A model generated the notes under the pieces. The model was not told the DNA's origin. It did no database searches and saw only the letters and a program-made list of their open reading frames with translations. From Bacteroidaceae bacterium (GTDB lineage: Bacteria; Bacteroidota; Bacteroidia; Bacteroidales; Bacteroidaceae): 52,041 bases of DNA. The stretch is taken from assembly GCA_017551925.1 (NCBI GenBank), contig JAFZKA010000038.1, forward strand, positions 1 to 52,041, given 5' to 3'. Below are positions 1 through 11,006 of the stretch, one piece after another (within the stretch, counting starts at the first letter, position 1; each line of letters opens with the position of its first letter). The translations under genes and the position numbers were made by a program.

Positions 1-466
1 AATTGGTCAGTTCAATGATGCAGTTAACAATTACATTCTTAGGATTGAATGATTTGACCAGTTCGTATGATGCACGCAGAGTTCCTCCTGTTGCAAGAAG
101 GTCATCATGTATCAGTACCACGTCATCGGTACTTATAGAGTCCTTGTGCATCTCTATACGGTCAAATCCATATTCTTTCTTATATTCTATGCTTACTTTC
201 TCATACGGAAGTTTTCCCGGTTTCCTTATGGGAATAAAGCCTGCATTAAGTTTATAAGCCAGGGCGGCACCTACTATGAATCCTCTTGATTCAACGCCAC
301 ATACCTTTGTGATGCCTTTGTCTTTATACATCTCATAGAGTGAATCCACAATCTCATCCATGTCATCAGGATTCATGAACCATGATGTGACATCTTTGAA
401 TTGCACACCCTTCATGGGGTAATCAGGTATATTCCTGAGATGGCTTATAAGTGTTTGTTTACTCAT
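1..466 (-). CDS. apt: Adenine phosphoribosyltransferase (3' end beyond window)
   Basis: Purine salvage enzyme that makes AMP from adenine and PRPP in the cytosol. The visible 155 residues start MSKQTLISHLRNIPDYPMKG and carry the type I phosphoribosyltransferase PRPP-binding signature VVLIHDDLLATGGTLRA near residues 123-139. An APT-like segment VESRGFIVGAAL precedes it. The family is usually about 170-178 residues, so roughly 20 C-terminal residues lie outside the window. The ATG is 37 bases after the mnmG stop codon on the same strand, and a parS-like palindrome occupies most of that gap. Identification is firm; only the C-terminus is unseen. Confidence 0.93.
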   Translation of the reverse strand, partial: MSKQTLISHLRNIPDYPMKGVQFKDVTSWFMNPDDMDEIVDSLYEMYKDKGITKVCGVESRGFIVGAALAYKLNAGFIPIRKPGKLPYEKVSIEYKKEYGFDRIEMHKDSISTDDVVLIHDDLLATGGTLRASYELVKSFNPKNVIVNCIIELTN

Positions 467-477
467 ATCTCTAAAAA

Positions 478-493
478 TGTTTCACGTGGAACA
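478..493. promoter_or_regulatory. parS: Putative parS site (ParB-binding centromere)
   Basis: The 16-mer TGTTTCACGTGGAACA sits between mnmG and apt. It differs from the widely conserved bacterial parS consensus TGTTTCACGTGAAACA at one position (G for A at position 12). With the flanking A and T it is an 18-bp palindrome with one imperfect pair. parS sites typically cluster near the replication origin, and mnmG (gidA) is a classic origin-proximal gene in many phyla. ParB binding here is inferred; parA and parB are not in the window. The other CACGTG cores I noticed lack the flanking arms. Confidence 0.75.
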
Positions 494-503
494 TTGTAGA
501 ATT

Positions 504-2378
504 CTATCTGTTTAACATCACCAGCAAAACGTTGATGTCGCTGGGTGAGACCCCCGGAATGCGACTTGCCTCAGCCAATGTTTCAGGGTCATGTCTGATA
601 AGCTTCTGTCGGCACTCGGTTGAGAGTGACAGAATAGAACTGTAATCAAAACGACCTTTGATGCGTATATCCTCAAGGCGTTTCATCTTATCGGCGATAA
701 GCCTTTCGCGGCTGATATATCCGCTGTATTTCATGAGAATCTCTGCGGCCTCAATTATCTCATCCTTGCGTTCTGCCGGTGTCTTGTCCAACTCTGCTTT
801 GAGCGCTTTTATATGTTGAGACAGATTGTCAAGTGTGAGTTGCGGTCTCTCAATCAGATCAGCCAACTTGCATCCCTCGCGTAGCGGAGTCGTTCCAAGT
901 TGCTCAAGAGCCTGGTTAATCAGAGCCGGTTTTACTGAGAATCCTTTGGCAAAATCAACAATCCGGTTTATTTCGTCGCGTTTGGAGCACATAAGGTTGT
1001 AACGCTCCTTGGTGGCCAGACCTATATTGTATGCACGCTCGGTAAGGCGCAGATCTGCATCATCCTGACGCAGGAGTATGCGGTACTCCGCTCTGGATGT
1101 GAACATACGGTACGGCTCATCTACACCTTTGGTAATAAGGTCATCAACGAGCACTCCTATGTATGCTTCATCACGTGCCAGAGTGAACGGTGCTCCGCCA
1201 TGGCAGGTAATATGTGCATTTATTCCGGCCAAGATGCCCTGGCCGCCGGCCTCTTCATATCCGGTTGTTCCGTTAACCTGCCCGGCCATAAACAGTCCGG
1301 ACACAACCTTTGATTCAAGTGTGTGCTTGAGTTGTGTCGGATCAAAGTAGTCATATTCTATGGCATATCCGGGGCGGTATATTACCAGGTCGCGGAAAGC
1401 GGGAATCTCTTTCAATGCTTTGATTTGGATGTCCATTGGCATTGATGATGAGAATCCGTTCAGATACATCTCATTGGTTTCTTCACCTTCAGGTTCCAGG
1501 AACAACTGGTGCTGGTCACGGTCAGGGAAAGTTACCAGTTTGGTCTCTATGCTGGGGCAATATCGCGGACCGATACTTTTAATCTGACCGTTGAAGAGAG
1601 GGGAGTCTTTGAGTCCGGAGCGTAACACCTCATGTACACGCTCGTTGGTATAGGTGGTCCAGCAGCACATCTGTTTGAGATGACGTTCTGAACCCATGAA
1701 TGAGAAACGGTGGAAATCATTTTCACCATCCTGGCGCTCCATCTCATCAAAGTGTACGCTGCGGCTGTCTATGCGTACCGGGGTACCGGTTTTCATTCGG
1801 CCGGTGCGTATTCCATGTTTCGTTATGGATTCTGTAAGCAGGTATGATGCAGGTTCTGAAATTCGCCCTCCCGGCATTGTCACGCGGCCTATATGCATCA
1901 GTCCGTTCAGGAATGTACCGGCGGTCAGAACTACGCACTTGCAAGAGAATTCCGCTCCCTCAAGTGTTTTTAATCCTGTAACCTGTCCGTCTTTTACCAA
2001 CAGTTCTGTAACGGTATCCTGCCAGATACTCAGATTGGGTTGATTCTCAAGGACCGTCCTCCATGCCCATATGAATTTGGCCCGGTCACACTGGGCGCGC
2101 GGGCTCCACATGGCGGGACCTTTGGAGCGGTTAAGTATGCGGAACTGTATGGCTGTTGAATCGGTAACCAGACCCATATGACCTCCAAGAGCATCTATCT
2201 CTCTGACTATCTGACCTTTGGCTATACCGCCAACGGCTGGATTGCAACTCATCTGTGCAATCTTGTTCATATCCATGGTTATCAGACAGGTCTTGGAACC
2301 CATCTGAGCGGCTGCGGTAGCCGCCTCACAACCGGCGTGTCCGGCACCGATAACTATAACGTCAAACTTAAAGTCCAT
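504..2378 (-). CDS. mnmG: tRNA uridine-5-carboxymethylaminomethyl(34) synthesis enzyme MnmG (GidA)
   Basis: FAD-dependent partner of MnmE (TrmE) that installs the 5-carboxymethylaminomethyl group on wobble uridine of tRNAs reading split codon boxes. At 624 residues it has the usual family length. Visible signatures are the N-terminal dinucleotide-binding motif GAGHAGCEAA (residues 12-21), the GidA block CNPAVGGIAKG (about 45-55), the conserved GQVNGTTGYEEAGGQG (about 367-382), and a helical C-terminal domain ending SPSDINVLLVMLNR. A TAACTTTG -7-like element lies just upstream of the ATG. The gene is followed on the same strand by apt, a pairing familiar in Bacteroidales. Confidence 0.97.
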   Translation of the reverse strand: MDFKFDVIVIGAGHAGCEAATAAAQMGSKTCLITMDMNKIAQMSCNPAVGGIAKGQIVREIDALGGHMGLVTDSTAIQFRILNRSKGPAMWSPRAQCDRAKFIWAWRTVLENQPNLSIWQDTVTELLVKDGQVTGLKTLEGAEFSCKCVVLTAGTFLNGLMHIGRVTMPGGRISEPASYLLTESITKHGIRTGRMKTGTPVRIDSRSVHFDEMERQDGENDFHRFSFMGSERHLKQMCCWTTYTNERVHEVLRSGLKDSPLFNGQIKSIGPRYCPSIETKLVTFPDRDQHQLFLEPEGEETNEMYLNGFSSSMPMDIQIKALKEIPAFRDLVIYRPGYAIEYDYFDPTQLKHTLESKVVSGLFMAGQVNGTTGYEEAGGQGILAGINAHITCHGGAPFTLARDEAYIGVLVDDLITKGVDEPYRMFTSRAEYRILLRQDDADLRLTERAYNIGLATKERYNLMCSKRDEINRIVDFAKGFSVKPALINQALEQLGTTPLREGCKLADLIERPQLTLDNLSQHIKALKAELDKTPAERKDEIIEAAEILMKYSGYISRERLIADKMKRLEDIRIKGRFDYSSILSLSTECRQKLIRHDPETLAEASRIPGVSPSDINVLLVMLNR

Positions 2379-2386
2379 ACAAGGCT

Positions 2387-2415
2387 CAAAGTTACTGCAA
2401 AATATTGGAACACAA
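2387..2415 (-). promoter_or_regulatory. Candidate promoter of mnmG
   Basis: Reading the minus strand, TTG (2415-2413), an 18-base spacer and TAACTTTG (2394-2387) approximate the Bacteroidota primary sigma-factor consensus (TTTG, about 19-21 nt, TAnnTTTG). The -7 element ends 8 bases before the mnmG ATG, so transcripts would have a very short leader. This is pattern matching only. Confidence 0.35.
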
Positions 2416-2525
2416 TAAAAGGGAAACCTATGTTCTATTTAAAATCGCGCCTGAATATGGGTAAAGGGGAGCAGTTTCTCCGAGCTACTCCGAGACTTTC
2501 CGGACCCTAAACGGCGAACTCCTTA

Positions 2526-4790
2526 TTAAAACTTTATGTTGAGAACTTTGATGTTGTTGCCATCGGGCTTGCGGATGATCTGAAGCTTGGATCTGTTTTC
2601 CTGCTGTATAATACCGTTCAAATCATAATACTTGCCATTTGTGCCGGTTTCATATACAGGACTTATTTCACTGGAGTTGTTTATAACCTTATACGGGTAT
2701 TTTGATGCGGTTGAATTATCGTCGTTTGAAATACATAAGCAGTCTGTTCCAAGAAATGCGGCACCTACTGTTCTGGAAAATATACCTCCATAGCATTTAA
2801 TGGAGCAACCTTTGTCTGCATACAGCAATGTGGTGGCATTCAACTTGCAGTCATTAATGACCACATTTCCTAATGACAGGCAGCCATATCCGTTACCGGT
2901 GTTTTCAATATCGGCATTGTCAATGACAGCTTCACCTTTAAAATAGAGAACCATATAATCACTGCTGAATTGCCCGTTGGTAATAAATGTTACAGTACCC
3001 GGGGTAGTATAGAGGGCAATGCGGTTATCATTTGAGTTTTTTGTTTTTGACAGATTTCTGAAAGTTCCTCCATTTATGGTCAATGTGTCAGCATTTGCAT
3101 AGAATATTAATACGCAATTATTTCCGGTAGTAGTAAATTCACCATTGTCAATTTTTAATTTACCTGCCGAAAGGATAACTTGGCCAATGCATGAGAACTT
3201 GCCGTCATTGATAATTGTTGTTGAATTTTCCGCAGCCACTATGCATCGACGAAAATCTTTTTCTGAAGAACCTATTTCAGTGACTTTGTTGACATACTCT
3301 CCACCATTAATAGTCAGCAGGCCAAAATTGTAGAAAATCTGCGTATTTCCTTGTGAAACTGTTATTTTTCCACCATCTTCACTGTCATTTACAGTAAAAG
3401 ACCCGTAATTATCGAATAAAGAATTTTTATAAAAATCAATTTCAGAACCGTTCAAGTCCAAAATAATGTTTTGACCAGGTAAGATAAAATAAGTTTTGGA
3501 AAGGTGCAGGTTTTCTACCATCTTTATATGCGTAGTTACTCCATTGTAAGGAGCCTGAGCAAAGGCAATATCAAGTGAAGGACATTCTATGCTGTCATTG
3601 ACAATGGCTACAGTCGGAAGTGTGTTTGTCGGTTGAAAATTCAGTATAGCGGACTGATCACTTTCTATGTAGTGGTGATTTTCAGTATAAAGTGCGTCTA
3701 AAGCAAAAAAACCGTTTTCAGAGCCTCCCCATCCCCAGTTAATGCTGAAATAGTTCTGGTCGGTATATCCGTCAATAACGAATGCATGGCCAAATCCAAT
3801 ACGACCTTCCTCATCTCCGTGATAGATAACAGGATGATTGTTATCAAGATCAATCTTCAATAGTGAATACCACTCTTCAGGAGTGTAGTCATTTTTATAT
3901 GATTTGACAGAATTGTATCCGAAATATGAAAAAAATGCTTTTGTTTGATTATCATAATTAGAGATGGTGCTGGTTCCATTTATGGAGTAATCTGATTGAA
4001 GGGCTGCACCTATATCGGCCATCAGCAGGGCAACGTTGTCTGCCTGCTGGCTGGAGTACTGACCCGGAACAAATTCCAAAGGCATTGAGTCCCAATCATA
4101 TGTATGCTGGTTCAGGTTTCTGGAATTGACATAAACGCCGCTATTAGGGCTGGTATAAGCCGGGGTGGTTCCACTGCCTTTTGCAGGGTAGCCATAATAT
4201 TTCATAGCTATAGCGTATGCAGTTGCCATACAACCTGTAAAGCATCTGTTCCCGTTTTGCATGGGGCATTGCCGGTTGTACGGATCGTCTTGATCCCATT
4301 TTGCTGTATTAAGTTGCTTTACCACATTGCCGATACCGGGAGACTGCCATAAAAGAGCCACTTCGGCACTCTGTTCCACGCCGTTCTCACGCGCATACAT
4401 TATCTGTCTTTCCATTTCATCCAGCCATTCTTTCATGGCAGGCGGAAGTTCTGCGTTTTCTTTATTCTGATGATCAATACTATAACCGAGAATAGGCCGG
4501 GCAACATCGTCACCTGCCACAATTATGAAATCATTGCGGTCAGCACCGCTGAATATATGATATGCCGGAGGATCTACAGTTGATTCCTTTAAGATAACGG
4601 GGGTGTCACCAGAGGAGCGTGACAAAGACATATTCTTACTGCTCAATCCTTTAGCGGCAAGAAAACTGTTAACCGTTTCCATCGCGTTTTCTTGAGTAAC
4701 AACTTTTGCGTTTGCGTTGAGAGTGACAAGAAAAAACGCTAAGAGAGCGCAGATTTTAATCTTGAATTGTATTGTTTCCTTTTTATGCAT
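2526..4790 (-). CDS. Secreted C10-family (streptopain-like) cysteine protease with beta-solenoid-like C-terminal region
   Basis: Probable exported thiol protease. I place the start at the internal Met (4790): the frame is open 14 codons further up to 4832, but MHKKETIQFKIKICALLAF followed by a hydrophobic run and ANA is a clean signal peptide. Numbering from that Met: an inhibitor-like propeptide at about 29-135 (QENAMETVNSFL...FIIVAGDDVARPILGYS); a peptidase domain at about 150-385 with the nucleophile Cys187 in CFTGCMATAYA, His335 in GFGHAFVIDGY and the INWGWGG loop; then about 370 residues of short repeats of the form LTINGGxF / IINDGKF / KIDNGEF, suggesting a parallel beta-solenoid. The C-terminus has YYDLNGIIQQ and then a short basic/hydrophobic strand, resembling the C-terminal sorting segment of T9SS cargo in Bacteroidales. 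Substrates are unknown. Confidence 0.85.
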   Translation of the reverse strand: MHKKETIQFKIKICALLAFFLVTLNANAKVVTQENAMETVNSFLAAKGLSSKNMSLSRSSGDTPVILKESTVDPPAYHIFSGADRNDFIIVAGDDVARPILGYSIDHQNKENAELPPAMKEWLDEMERQIMYARENGVEQSAEVALLWQSPGIGNVVKQLNTAKWDQDDPYNRQCPMQNGNRCFTGCMATAYAIAMKYYGYPAKGSGTTPAYTSPNSGVYVNSRNLNQHTYDWDSMPLEFVPGQYSSQQADNVALLMADIGAALQSDYSINGTSTISNYDNQTKAFFSYFGYNSVKSYKNDYTPEEWYSLLKIDLDNNHPVIYHGDEEGRIGFGHAFVIDGYTDQNYFSINWGWGGSENGFFALDALYTENHHYIESDQSAILNFQPTNTLPTVAIVNDSIECPSLDIAFAQAPYNGVTTHIKMVENLHLSKTYFILPGQNIILDLNGSEIDFYKNSLFDNYGSFTVNDSEDGGKITVSQGNTQIFYNFGLLTINGGEYVNKVTEIGSSEKDFRRCIVAAENSTTIINDGKFSCIGQVILSAGKLKIDNGEFTTTGNNCVLIFYANADTLTINGGTFRNLSKTKNSNDNRIALYTTPGTVTFITNGQFSSDYMVLYFKGEAVIDNADIENTGNGYGCLSLGNVVINDCKLNATTLLYADKGCSIKCYGGIFSRTVGAAFLGTDCLCISNDDNSTASKYPYKVINNSSEISPVYETGTNGKYYDLNGIIQQENRSKLQIIRKPDGNNIKVLNIKF

Positions 4791-7405: not shown

Positions 7406-7509
7406 TTTTCTTAAGGTTGGTTTTGGATTAGCGGTTGTAAAAATACAAGTTTCTCTTAAACGCGGCAAGAATCAGCTGCATAGTTATAGGATTAATACAC
7501 ATTTATAAG

Positions 7510-7517
7510 TATATTTG
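7510..7517 (+). promoter_or_regulatory. Candidate -7 promoter element for frdCAB
   Basis: TATATTTG fits the Bacteroidota TAnnTTTG element, 56 bases before the frdC ATG. No clear -33 TTG at 19-21 bases is visible, so this is a half-match. Confidence 0.4.
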
Positions 7518-7573
7518 CACACATTTAATACACGCATAAACTAAAACATTCATAATCAAAAAACTAAACTTTT

Positions 7574-8257
7574 ATGTGGTTAATCGATTCTTCAATCGGA
7601 CGTAAGGTGGTGATGAGCGTTTCCGGTGGCGCTCTGATCCTGTTCCTGACATTCCACATGGCAATGAACTGCGTAGCCCTGATTTCAGGCGAGGCATATA
7701 ATGCCGTGTGTGAGTTCCTGGGAGCAAACTGGTATGCACTGGTAGGTACGGTGGGACTTGCCTTCCTGGTAGTTGTCCACTTTGTTTATGCTTTCATTCT
7801 GTCTGTTCAGAACGCGAAAGCACGTGGCAATCAGAAATATGCCGTTACAGAGAGACCAAAGTCTGTTGAATGGGCTTCACAGAACATGCTTGTTCTGGGT
7901 GTTATCGTGGCTCTGGGTCTGGTTCTGCACCTGGCCAATTTCTGGTCAAAGATGCAGTTGCAGGAACTTATCCATTCACAGGCTATCGTGAATGGTGTTG
8001 CTGTATCACCCACCGACGGTGCTGCTCTCATTGAGTACACCTTCTCACAGTGGTACTTTGTTGTACTTTATATCGTTTGGCTGGGTGCCCTTTGGTTCCA
8101 TCTGTCACACGGTTTCTGGAGCGCTCTCCAGACCCTTGGCTGGAGCGGTAAGACCTGGCTCTGCCGCTGGCAGGTAATAGGCAACATCTATGTGGCTGTG
8201 GTTATCCTTGGCTTCATGGCCGTTGTTCTTACATTCTTCTTCAAGAGCCTTTGTTAA
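7574..8257 (+). CDS. frdC: Fumarate reductase / succinate dehydrogenase cytochrome b subunit
   Basis: Membrane anchor of the quinol:fumarate reductase complex. The 227 residues form five hydrophobic segments with histidines positioned like those of the di-haem b558 family (FHMAMN near 28, HFVYAF, HLANFW, FHLSHGFWSALQ near 176-186). In anaerobic Bacteroidales this enzyme carries electrons from menaquinol to fumarate, which is central to succinate and propionate production. First gene of frdCAB, 19 bases before the flavoprotein start, on one transcript that ends at the strong hairpin at 11027-11064. It could equally be named sdhC; direction of catalysis is inferred from the group's physiology. 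Confidence 0.94.
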   Translation: MWLIDSSIGRKVVMSVSGGALILFLTFHMAMNCVALISGEAYNAVCEFLGANWYALVGTVGLAFLVVVHFVYAFILSVQNAKARGNQKYAVTERPKSVEWASQNMLVLGVIVALGLVLHLANFWSKMQLQELIHSQAIVNGVAVSPTDGAALIEYTFSQWYFVVLYIVWLGALWFHLSHGFWSALQTLGWSGKTWLCRWQVIGNIYVAVVILGFMAVVLTFFFKSLC

Positions 8258-8276
8258 ACTGTAAATGCACACAATT

Positions 8277-10235
8277 ATGGCTACTATAGATTCAAAAATT
8301 CCCGAAGGCCCGTTGGCTGAAAAATGGTCCAACTATAAGGCTCATCAGAAACTTGTCAACCCCGCTAACAAGCGTAAGCTTGACATCATAGTTGTAGGTT
8401 CAGGTCTTGCCGGCGCATCAGCTGCTGCAACACTTGGTGACCTTGGTTTCAAGGTAAAGTGCTTCTGCATCCAGGATTCACCCCGTCGTGCACACTCTAT
8501 CGCTGCACAGGGTGGTATCAATGCTGCCAAGAACTACCAGAATGACGGTGACTCAGTATATCGTCTTTTCTACGATACCATCAAGGGCGGTGACTACCGT
8601 TCACGTGAGGCCAACGTATATCGCCTGGCTGAGGTTTCAAACAATATCATTGACCAGTGCGTAGCACAGGGCGTTCCCTTTGCACGTGAGTACGGCGGTA
8701 CACTTGCCAACCGTTCATTCGGTGGTGCTCAGGTATCGCGTACATTCTACGCCCGCGGTCAAACCGGTCAGCAGCTTCTGCTTGGTGCTTACTCAGCTTT
8801 GAGTTATCAGGTACATCAGGGTAACGTTGAATTGTTTACCCGTTGCGAGATGCTTGATCTGGTTATGATCAAGGATGAGAACGGAAAGGAGCGTGCACGC
8901 GGTATCATCTACCGTGACTTGGTAACCGGTGAGATCAAGCGTTGCTCAGCCCACGCCGTTGTTATCGGCACCGGCGGTTACGGAAATACCTATTTCCTGT
9001 CAACCAACGCTATGGGCAGTAACGGTTCAGCCGCAATGCAGTGCTACCGCAAGGGTGCCTGGTTTGCCAACCCCGCTTTTGCTCAGATTCACCCCACCTG
9101 TATTCCTGTACACGGTGACAAGCAGTCTAAACTGACACTTATGTCAGAGTCTCTGCGTAATGACGGACGTATCTGGGTTCCCAAGAAACTTGAGGATGCC
9201 AAGAAACTCCAGAAGGGTGAACTCAATCCTAACGATATACCCGATGAGGACCGCGACTTCTACCTGGAGCGCCGTTATCCTGCATTCGGTAACCTGGTTC
9301 CCCGTGACGTTGCATCACGTGCAGCCAAGGAGCGTTGCGACAAGGGCTATGGCGTAAACAACACCGGTCTGGCTGTATTCCTTGACTTCAAGTATGCTAT
9401 CCAGCGTCTTGGCAAGCAGGCTGTAGCCGACAAGTACGGTAACCTGTTCGATATGTATGAGGAGATTACCGATGTCAATCCGTATGAGAATCCTATGATG
9501 ATATTCCCCGCCATCCACTACACAATGGGCGGTATCTGGGTTGACTATGAGTTGCAGACCTCTATCCCCGGTCTGTTTGCCATTGGTGAGTGCAACTTCT
9601 CAGACCACGGAGCAAACCGTCTGGGTGCTTCTGCTCTTATGCAGGGTCTTGCCGACGGTTACTTTGTACTGCCTTACACCATCCAGAACTATCTGGCTGA
9701 CCAGATCCAGGTTCCGCGCTTCAGCACAGACCTGCCTGAGTTCGATGCTGCCGAGAAGGCTGTCAAGGAGAAGATTGCCAAGATAATGAGCATAGGCGGA
9801 AAGCGTTCTGTTGATTCTATCCATAAGGAACTTGGCCATATTATGTGGGAGTATGTCGGTATGGGCCGCACAGAAGAGTCTCTTAAGACCGCTCTCAAGA
9901 AACTGGATGAGGTAGAGAAGACCTTCTGGTCAGACCTGCGCGTTCCGGGTGATGCCCAGACTCTTAACATTGAACTTGAAAAGGCTCTGCGCCTGCTTGA
10001 CTTCATTGAGATTGGCAAGCTGATGGCTTATGACGCTCTTAACCGTGAGGAGTCATGCGGCGGTCACTTCCGTGAGGAGCATCAGACACCTGAGGGCGAG
10101 GCACTGCGTCATGATGACAAGTTCTCATACGTAGCCTGCTGGAACTACCAGGGTGAGGGCAAGGCACCTGAGTTGCTCAAGGAGCCTCTCAACTACGAGT
10201 ATATTAAGGTTCAGACCCGTAATTACAAGAACTGA
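8277..10235 (+). CDS. frdA: Fumarate reductase / succinate dehydrogenase flavoprotein subunit
   Basis: Catalytic subunit interconverting fumarate and succinate with covalently bound FAD. About 652 residues from the chosen ATG (8277, [17 protein letters not shown]); an in-frame ATG at 8265 is also possible but adds only four unconserved residues. Visible motifs: FAD-binding [16 protein letters not shown], flavinylation-site region [18 protein letters not shown] in the substrate region, and [21 protein letters not shown]. The length is that of the long group found in Bacteroidota and epsilonproteobacterial-type enzymes. Codon choice looks more restricted than in neighbouring genes, consistent with high expression. 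Confidence 0.96.
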
Positions 10236-10250
10236 TAAAAAAGCATCAAT

Positions 10251-11006
10251 ATGGAAAAGAATATAAGTTTTAAACTGAAAATTTGGCGCCAGAGAGGTCC
10301 TAAGGAGAAGGGCCAGTTCAAGGTGTATGAAATGAAGGATATCCCCACCGATACCTCATTCCTTGAGATGCTTGACATTCTGAACGAGCAGCTCATCAAT
10401 GCAGGTGAGGAACCCGTGGTATTTGACCATGACTGCCGCGAGGGTATCTGCGGTATGTGCTCACTCTATATCAACGGTCATCCGCACGGCCCCGCTACAG
10501 GTGCTACCACCTGCCAGCTTTACATGCGCCGTTTCAAGGATGGTGAGACCATCACTGTTGAGCCTTGGCGTTCAGCCGGTTTCCCGGTTATCCGTGACCT
10601 GATGGTTGACCGTCGTGCATATGACAAGATCATGCAGGCCGGTGGTTACGTATCAATCAATACCGGTGGTGTACCCGATGCCAACGCAATTCCTATCTCA
10701 AAGGAAAAGGCTGACCTGGCTATGGATGCTGCATCATGCATCGGTTGCGGTGCCTGCGTTGCTGCCTGCAAGAACGGCTCTGCAATGCTGTTTGTCAGCG
10801 CAAAGGTTAGCCAGCTTGCTCTGCTCCCGCAGGGTCAGGTAGAGGCCGCACGTCGCGCCAAGGCTATGCTCTCCAAAATGGATGAGCTTGGATTCGGTAA
10901 CTGCACCAACACCCGCGCCTGCGAGGCCGAGTGCCCCAAGTGCATCAGCATCAGCAACATCGCCCGCCTGAACCGCGAGTTCATTGCTGCCAAACTGAAA
11001 GACTGA
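10251..11006 (+). CDS. frdB: Fumarate reductase / succinate dehydrogenase iron-sulfur subunit
   Basis: Electron-transfer subunit linking cytochrome b haems to FrdA. 251 residues. The N-terminal 2Fe-2S ferredoxin-like domain has CREGICGMC and a later TTCQ. The C-terminal domain carries [11 protein letters not shown] and [14 protein letters not shown], which supply the 4Fe-4S and 3Fe-4S ligands. It starts 15 bases after frdA stops, with a strong stem-loop terminator about 20 bases downstream. Identification is secure from cysteine spacing and operon order C-A-B. Confidence 0.96.

What the first reader, a model, noticed from the sequence alone, without database searches (positions are those of the whole stretch)
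478..493. A parS-like site between mnmG and apt, suggesting an origin-proximal location
TGTTTCACGTGGAACA matches the conserved parS palindrome at 15 of 16 positions and sits beside mnmG, a gene classically near oriC. Few sequences of this kind should occur by chance in 52 kb, and I see only one. If functional, it marks a ParB loading site in an order where partition is little studied. The ATG of apt is 12 bases away, so ParB spreading could also affect apt.
Basis: partly seen in the sequence, partly recalled or inferred. Interest (0 to 1): 0.72.

Follow-up and report, generated by a model that had tools for sequence, protein, structure and literature searches.

The report
Origin-proximal parS centromere beside mnmG
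A 16-letter DNA palindrome next to the gene mnmG is very probably the docking site for the chromosome-sorting protein ParB of this bacterium; the same site sits beside the same gene in most of the relatives examined, close to where chromosome copying seems to start.

Summary
TGTTTCACGTGGAACA (478-493) lies between the mnmG stop and the apt start. About 0.0007 such sites are expected by chance in the window; it is the only one within one mismatch in the 2.62-Mb genome. That genome encodes one clear ParB, next to ParA, with parS-type DNA-reading residues.

Of 80 relatives' mnmG loci, 76 carry the site within one mismatch just downstream of mnmG, 3 with two, 1 none; flanks have drifted. The 14-bp core occurs in 140 of 148 phylum genomes (reversed control 8), and 71 of 83 site loci examined have mnmG within 1.5 kb. 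In two close relatives the GC-skew switch falls at or within about 15 kb of the site. Where measurable, dnaA and parB are far away.

Among 17 genomes lacking an exact site, a degenerate copy lies beside mnmG in 11 of 14 with ParB and 0 of 3 without.

It is a new member of a known kind (chromosomal ParABS). Unusual: anchoring to mnmG across the phylum, a distant par operon, and no ScpA or full-length SMC in 14 of 14 class-Bacteroidia genomes searched. ParB binding is inferred, not shown.

The parts
478..493 (.). parS site TGTTTCACGTGGAACA (read in mnmG direction: TGTTCCACGTGAAACA); inferred ParB loading site
504..2378 (-). mnmG (gidA), the conserved neighbour of the site
   Evidence: NCBIfam TIGR00136, 787 bits; adjacency in relatives
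1..466 (-). apt (adenine phosphoribosyltransferase), 3' end cut by the contig start; start codon 11 bases from the site
   Evidence: NCBIfam NF002636, 191 bits

Best explanation
The palindrome is the chromosomal parS site, probably the only one, of a ParABS partition system in a Bacteroidales species (Bacteroidaceae by inference from kin). The ParB encoded elsewhere in the genome (contig C105, next to parA) is inferred to bind the two half-sites through its HTH domain, load as a CTP-dependent clamp, spread over mnmG, apt and neighbouring DNA, and be moved by ParA, so that the origin region is segregated first. Shown here: the site, its uniqueness, its conservation, its place at or near the GC-skew switch in relatives, a ParB with the GERRxR motif, HTH and dimerisation domains and parS-type residues, and absence of the site beside mnmG in the three genomes without ParB. 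Inferred: binding, spreading and segregation. No ScpA and no full-length SMC was found, so ParB probably does not load canonical condensin here.
For: Single site within one mismatch in the genome; expected 0.037. One ParB over the Pfam cut-off with ParA directly upstream and ParB_N, HTH_ParB and ParB_C domains; residues R/Y/K/G at the four specificity positions, R173 and G201 being the parS-type pair. Of 80 mnmG loci (best 80 kept of 584) 76 have the site within one mismatch near the mnmG end, 3 with two, 1 none (recounted); flanks average 0.16 and 0.39 bits against 1.78 for the site (anchored on the motif). 140 of 148 phylum genomes and 88 of 99 order genomes have the 14-mer, against 8 and 4 for the reversed control. 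mnmG lies within 1.5 kb in 27 of 30, 18 of 24 and 26 of 29 loci (32; 35). GC-skew change point at 60 kb with the site at 59.7 kb in G001, and 86 kb with 85.5 kb in G003; block permutations reached this in 3 of 300 and 0 of 300. Degenerate site beside mnmG in 11 of 14 ParB-bearing and 0 of 3 ParB-lacking genomes, p = 0.029.
Against: No binding data. 12 of 83 phylum- and order-level site loci show no mnmG within 1.5 kb; only two of these (L143, L195) were cut short by a contig start. In G001 the 2.5-kb bins stay mixed out to about 75 kb and the AT skew flips near 67.5 kb, so the switch is not sharp. In G011 it is about 90 kb from the site; in G005 the change point is about 40 kb away and the cumulative minimum 55 kb; G137 is noisy. 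No clear DnaA-box cluster. The reversed 14-mer matches once in the window's own genome. The window ends 477 bases beyond the site, so its own origin is not visible.
Confidence: 0.93

Rival explanations
1. A transcription-factor operator or RNA hairpin that controls apt or mnmG, unrelated to partition.
For: The site lies 11 bases from the apt start codon and is a palindrome.
Against: In relatives the same site occurs downstream of mnmG or upstream of it, and often in tandem; the distance from the end of the mnmG match to the site varies from 1 to 159 bases over 79 loci; no terminator-like or promoter-like site at 380-620 and no Rfam family at 1-3000; absent beside mnmG in 3 of 3 genomes without ParB.
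Confidence: 0.03
2. A real parS site that also, through ParB spreading, regulates apt and mnmG expression, so that selection on expression helps keep it there.
For: In Pseudomonas aeruginosa ParB at intergenic parS3 and parS4 represses adjacent genes (passages of PMC7022226); the site stays beside mnmG in 71 of 83 loci.
Against: Side, number and distance of the sites relative to mnmG vary; in B. subtilis loss of Spo0J did not change genes next to parS (PMC7022226 passages). Not tested here.
Confidence: 0.25
3. A chance match.
For: The looser reversed 14-mer control also matches once in this genome.
Against: Expected 0.0007 in the window; the identical 16-mer at the same place in all six closest loci (L005-L010), with drifting flanks.
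Confidence: 0.005

Closest known systems
Chromosomal ParABS (Bacillus subtilis Spo0J-parS, Caulobacter ParB-parS)
   Same: Same 16-bp palindrome; ParB with GERRxR motif, HTH and parS-type residues R173 and G201; ParA in the same operon; origin-proximal site.
   Different: parB lies 11-41% of the chromosome away from the site in 9 of 9 single-contig Bacteroidota genomes, whereas the review PMC7022226 calls par operons inside the ori domain a conserved feature (passages). A single site in this genome; the review says most species have more than one. No ScpA or full-length SMC found in 14 of 14 class genomes searched.
parS clusters of Bacteroides caecimuris and Muribaculum intestinale in the OMM12 Hi-C study (PMC10197239)
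   Same: ParABS found; parS near the origin as judged from GC skew; the authors note that the origin does not always coincide with dnaA, and that no condensin homologue was found in the two Bacteroidetes (section 19 and passages read).
   Different: The section and passages read do not mention mnmG, phylum-wide conservation or separation from parAB; the rest of the paper was not read.
Noc and its NBS sites
   Same: Same protein superfamily and a similar palindrome.
   Different: Noc carries Q173 and R201 and NBS differs at bases 1 and 6; this ParB and this site are of the parS type.

Membership tests
Chromosomal parS site (ParABS) | 16-bp palindrome close to TGTTTCACGTGAAACA | tested here: met
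   15 of 16 identical
Chromosomal parS site (ParABS) | Cognate chromosomal ParB and ParA in the genome | tested here: met
Chromosomal parS site (ParABS) | ParB with parS-type, not Noc-type, specificity residues (R173, G201) | tested here: met
   R157 and G185 of this ParB align to them
Chromosomal parS site (ParABS) | Location in the origin domain | tested here: met
   By GC skew in relatives G001, G003, G048 and, 90 kb off, G011; G005 and G137 less clear; not testable in the window's own fragmented genome
Chromosomal parS site (ParABS) | par operon also inside the ori domain (usual, not obligatory) | tested here: not met
   Measured from parS, parB is 11-41% of the chromosome away in 9 of 9 single-contig relatives, G049 (11%) being borderline; own parAB is on another contig
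Chromosomal parS site (ParABS) | ParB binds the site and spreads from it | not testable with these tools
   needs ChIP-seq or in vitro binding
ParB-parS loading platform for SMC-ScpAB | SMC and ScpA present | tested here: not met
   ScpA in 0 of 14 class-Bacteroidia genomes and 5 of 5 others; SMC over the cut-off in 0 of 14 (partial sub-cut-off matches in all 14) and 4 of 5, the fifth as two partial pieces; ScpB not searched

The most novel reading that the evidence does not exclude
In class Bacteroidia the mnmG-anchored parS is a condensin-independent centromere: SMC-ScpAB was lost, the par operon and dnaA moved away from the origin, and ParB-parS stayed at mnmG, working with ParA alone or recruiting an undescribed loop-extruding factor. 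Natural ParB variants with altered specificity residues have changed this site at the matching bases.
Probability: 0.3. Interest if true: 0.75.

Novelty: new member of a known kind. Interest (0 to 1): 0.5.

Why it matters
A site beside a widely conserved gene gives a simple origin marker for fragmented Bacteroidota genomes, where dnaA misleads. It makes chromosome segregation in a dominant gut phylum directly testable: one 16-bp site, one ParB, and apparently no canonical condensin.

Tried and rejected
DnaA-box scans: TTWTNCACA gave no cluster near the site in G001, G011 or the window. TTATCCACA within one mismatch gave four boxes at 67.5-69 kb in G001, in a low-GC stretch 8-11 kb from the site, against about 0.25 per kb overall; too weak to call oriC.

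Sampled GC skew of G137 is too noisy to place its origin alone. G005 gave a change point at 213 kb (block permutation 1 of 300) and a cumulative minimum at 310 kb against the site at 254.6 kb, which does not resolve it.

A pooled Fisher test of ParB against site presence (printed, p = 0.0026) is not used: the added genomes were chosen for having sites, and one of them (G049) has its site away from mnmG. Only the within-set test is cited.

SMC-like hits: of six stretches fetched, frames from three were classified: one of G001 is SbcC-like (258 bits, below the curated cut-off), one of the window's genome matches SMC only weakly over a coiled-coil stretch, one of G001 matched nothing. The other three stretches were not classified. 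MukBEF, MksBEF and ScpB were not searched.

My first count of the loci took 28 of the 30 returned; L151 and L152 were added on recheck, both beside mnmG.

Literature: no listed title or abstract opening links parS to mnmG in Bacteroidota; several listings were capped well below the number of hits, and the library holds only openly licensed papers. Passages of PMC8653839 and PMC13342612 do not bear on it. The parS distribution survey that I looked up by DOI (Livny et al. 2007; recalled) is not held.

Full report
OBSERVATION. The window is the whole of contig C37 of a 2.62-Mb, 127-contig, 97%-complete genome. TGTTTCACGTGGAACA at 478-493 differs from TGTTTCACGTGAAACA at one base. It lies between mnmG (504-2378, minus strand) and apt (start codon 464-466, minus strand, gene cut by the contig start). 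Sites within one mismatch are expected 0.0007 times in the window and 0.037 times in the genome. The genome holds one such site and two with two mismatches, where 0.84 are expected within two; both of the latter are inside long open frames. The looser reversed 14-mer control matches once in this genome, so weak matches alone mean little.

PARTNERS. The genome has one ParB over the Pfam cut-off, on contig C105. It has ParB_N, HTH_ParB and ParB_C domains and a GERRFR motif, and the ParA frame upstream overlaps its start by four bases. A second HTH_ParB hit (C121) is below the cut-off. Aligned to Caulobacter ParB, the four positions that set DNA specificity read R, Y, K, G; R173 and G201 are the parS-type pair and Noc has Q and R there (PMC7383237, passages).

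CONSERVATION AT mnmG. Of these 80, 76 have a site within one mismatch of TGTTYCACGTGRAACA between 50 bases before and 300 after the end of the mnmG match (42 with no mismatch, 34 with one), 3 have two mismatches (L037, L052, L071), and L079 has none. In the window and its six closest loci (L005-L010) the 16-mer is identical while the flanks vary; over 80 sequences anchored on the motif (the window and 79 loci) the site averages 1.78 bits against 0.16 and 0.39 in the flanks (the core is partly fixed by the anchoring). In 19 of these genomes, sites within one mismatch number one in 12, two in 5, four in 1 and none in 1 (reversed control nonzero in 5 of 19).

PHYLUM. The exact 14-mer GTTYCACGTGRAAC occurs in 140 of 148 genomes drawn from the phylum (reversed control in 8) and in 88 of 99 drawn from the order (control in 4). 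Loci were returned for only part of these, one per genome: mnmG lies within 1.5 kb in 27 of 30 (the window included), in 18 of 24 from one genome in each of 24 further families, and in 26 of 29; 71 of 83 in all. Two sites about 1.9-2.0 kb apart in many genomes would fit one on each side of mnmG (inferred from spacing); some genomes have tandem sites. Many Prevotellaceae loci have a second site about 590-1440 bases downstream of mnmG.

ORIGIN. In G001 and G003, whose mnmG proteins are 95% identical to the window's, the GC-skew change point is at 60 and 86 kb and the site at 59.7 and 85.5 kb; cumulative minima are at 57.5 and 87.4 kb; block permutations reached the observed fit in 3 of 300 and 0 of 300. 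At finer grain G001 is mixed between 57 and 75 kb and its AT skew flips near 67.5 kb, so the switch is placed only to within about 15 kb. In the complete genome G048 sampled skew is negative in 8 of 9 samples before 0.876 Mb, where the site is, positive in the next 7, and negative or near zero in the last 4. In G011 the switch is at about 2.34-2.35 Mb and the site at 2.250 Mb (this contig holds 4.48 of 6.8 Mb). G005 (change point about 40 kb from the site, cumulative minimum 55 kb) and G137 (noisy) are less clear. dnaA is 1.19 Mb from the site in G011 and 1.33 Mb in G019, and on a different contig in the other nine genomes that have both, where the distance is unknown.

PAR OPERON. ParB was found in 20 of 20 site-bearing genomes searched. 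In all 9 that are single contigs it is away from the site: 29% of the chromosome in G137, 23% in G122, 22% in G153, 31% in G048, 30% in G114, 25% in G076, 34% in G024, 11% in G049 and 41% in G151 (positions; lengths). [quoted passage not shown]

COVARIATION WITH ParB. The 20 genomes without a site (19 without the exact 14-mer; G018 without the 16-mer at one mismatch) were searched for ParB and mnmG. ParB was found in 17, mnmG in 17. Among the 17 with mnmG, 11 of 14 with ParB have a site within three mismatches beside mnmG in the fetched locus (up to 1.5 kb on each side), and 0 of 3 without ParB (G018, G211, G239) do (p = 0.029). The three ParB-bearing exceptions are L317, L318 and L324; L324's mnmG runs into a contig end. 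Of the 17 ParBs, 14 have R173 and G201, positions that PMC7383237 calls absolutely conserved. G167 has N173, and beside its mnmG (L317) lies TTTTCACGTGAAAA, with T in place of G at base 1, the base that R173 contacts. G204 has A201 and its site GTTCCTTGAGGAAC has T in place of A at base 6, the base read by the residue at 201 in Noc. G110 has A201 and no palindrome was found beside mnmG. Against this: it is post hoc and rests on two genomes; unrelated palindromes of like symmetry occur in 7 of the 11 loci; and G074 keeps R173 though one half of its site has A at base 1.

CONDENSIN. ScpA was found in 0 of 14 class-Bacteroidia genomes and in 5 of 5 phylum genomes outside the class; SMC over the curated cut-off in 0 of 14 and 4 of 5, the fifth (G049) as two adjacent partial hits; all 14 have partial matches far below the cut-off. 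The class of eight of the 14 is taken from record titles. This extends the report for two Bacteroidetes in PMC10197239, which also reports parS near the origin and origins away from dnaA.

MECHANISM. Shown: site, uniqueness, conservation, location in relatives, partner proteins, absence beside mnmG without ParB. Inferred from known ParABS systems: ParB loads at the site, closes as a CTP clamp, slides into mnmG and apt, and ParA moves the complex so that sister origins separate. Without SMC-ScpA the usual second role, loading condensin, would have to be absent or filled by something else. An effect on apt expression is possible and untested.

VERDICT. A functional parS is by far the best reading. 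The kind is known; the anchoring to mnmG across the phylum, the distant par operon and the missing condensin are what a specialist would find new.

Noticed in passing
L309/L317 (G167), L306/L314 (G204), L304/L318 (G110): Natural ParBs with N173 or A201, positions reported as absolutely conserved; in two of the three the mnmG-adjacent palindrome is altered at the matching base.
   Followed up: partly
G018, G211, G239 (L310, L313, L311): Three genomes (two placed in the order, G018 a Bacteroidaceae MAG by title) without a detectable HTH_ParB protein and without a parS-like site beside mnmG; G239 is a 1.2-Mb genome listed at 99% completeness.
   Followed up: partly
14 class-Bacteroidia genomes: No ScpA and no full-length SMC in 14 of 14, while 5 of 5 phylum genomes from outside the class have both (one SMC in two pieces).
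   Followed up: partly
L110, about 7500-10500 (G001:C1 67.5-70.5 kb): Low-GC stretch (29-37%) 8-11 kb from the site, with an AT-skew flip and four near-DnaA boxes; a possible oriC.
   Followed up: partly
L042, L043, L058, L062, L066, L072-L075, L077, L078, L080-L083: Second parS-like site about 590-1440 bases downstream of mnmG, mostly in Prevotellaceae by title.
   Followed up: no
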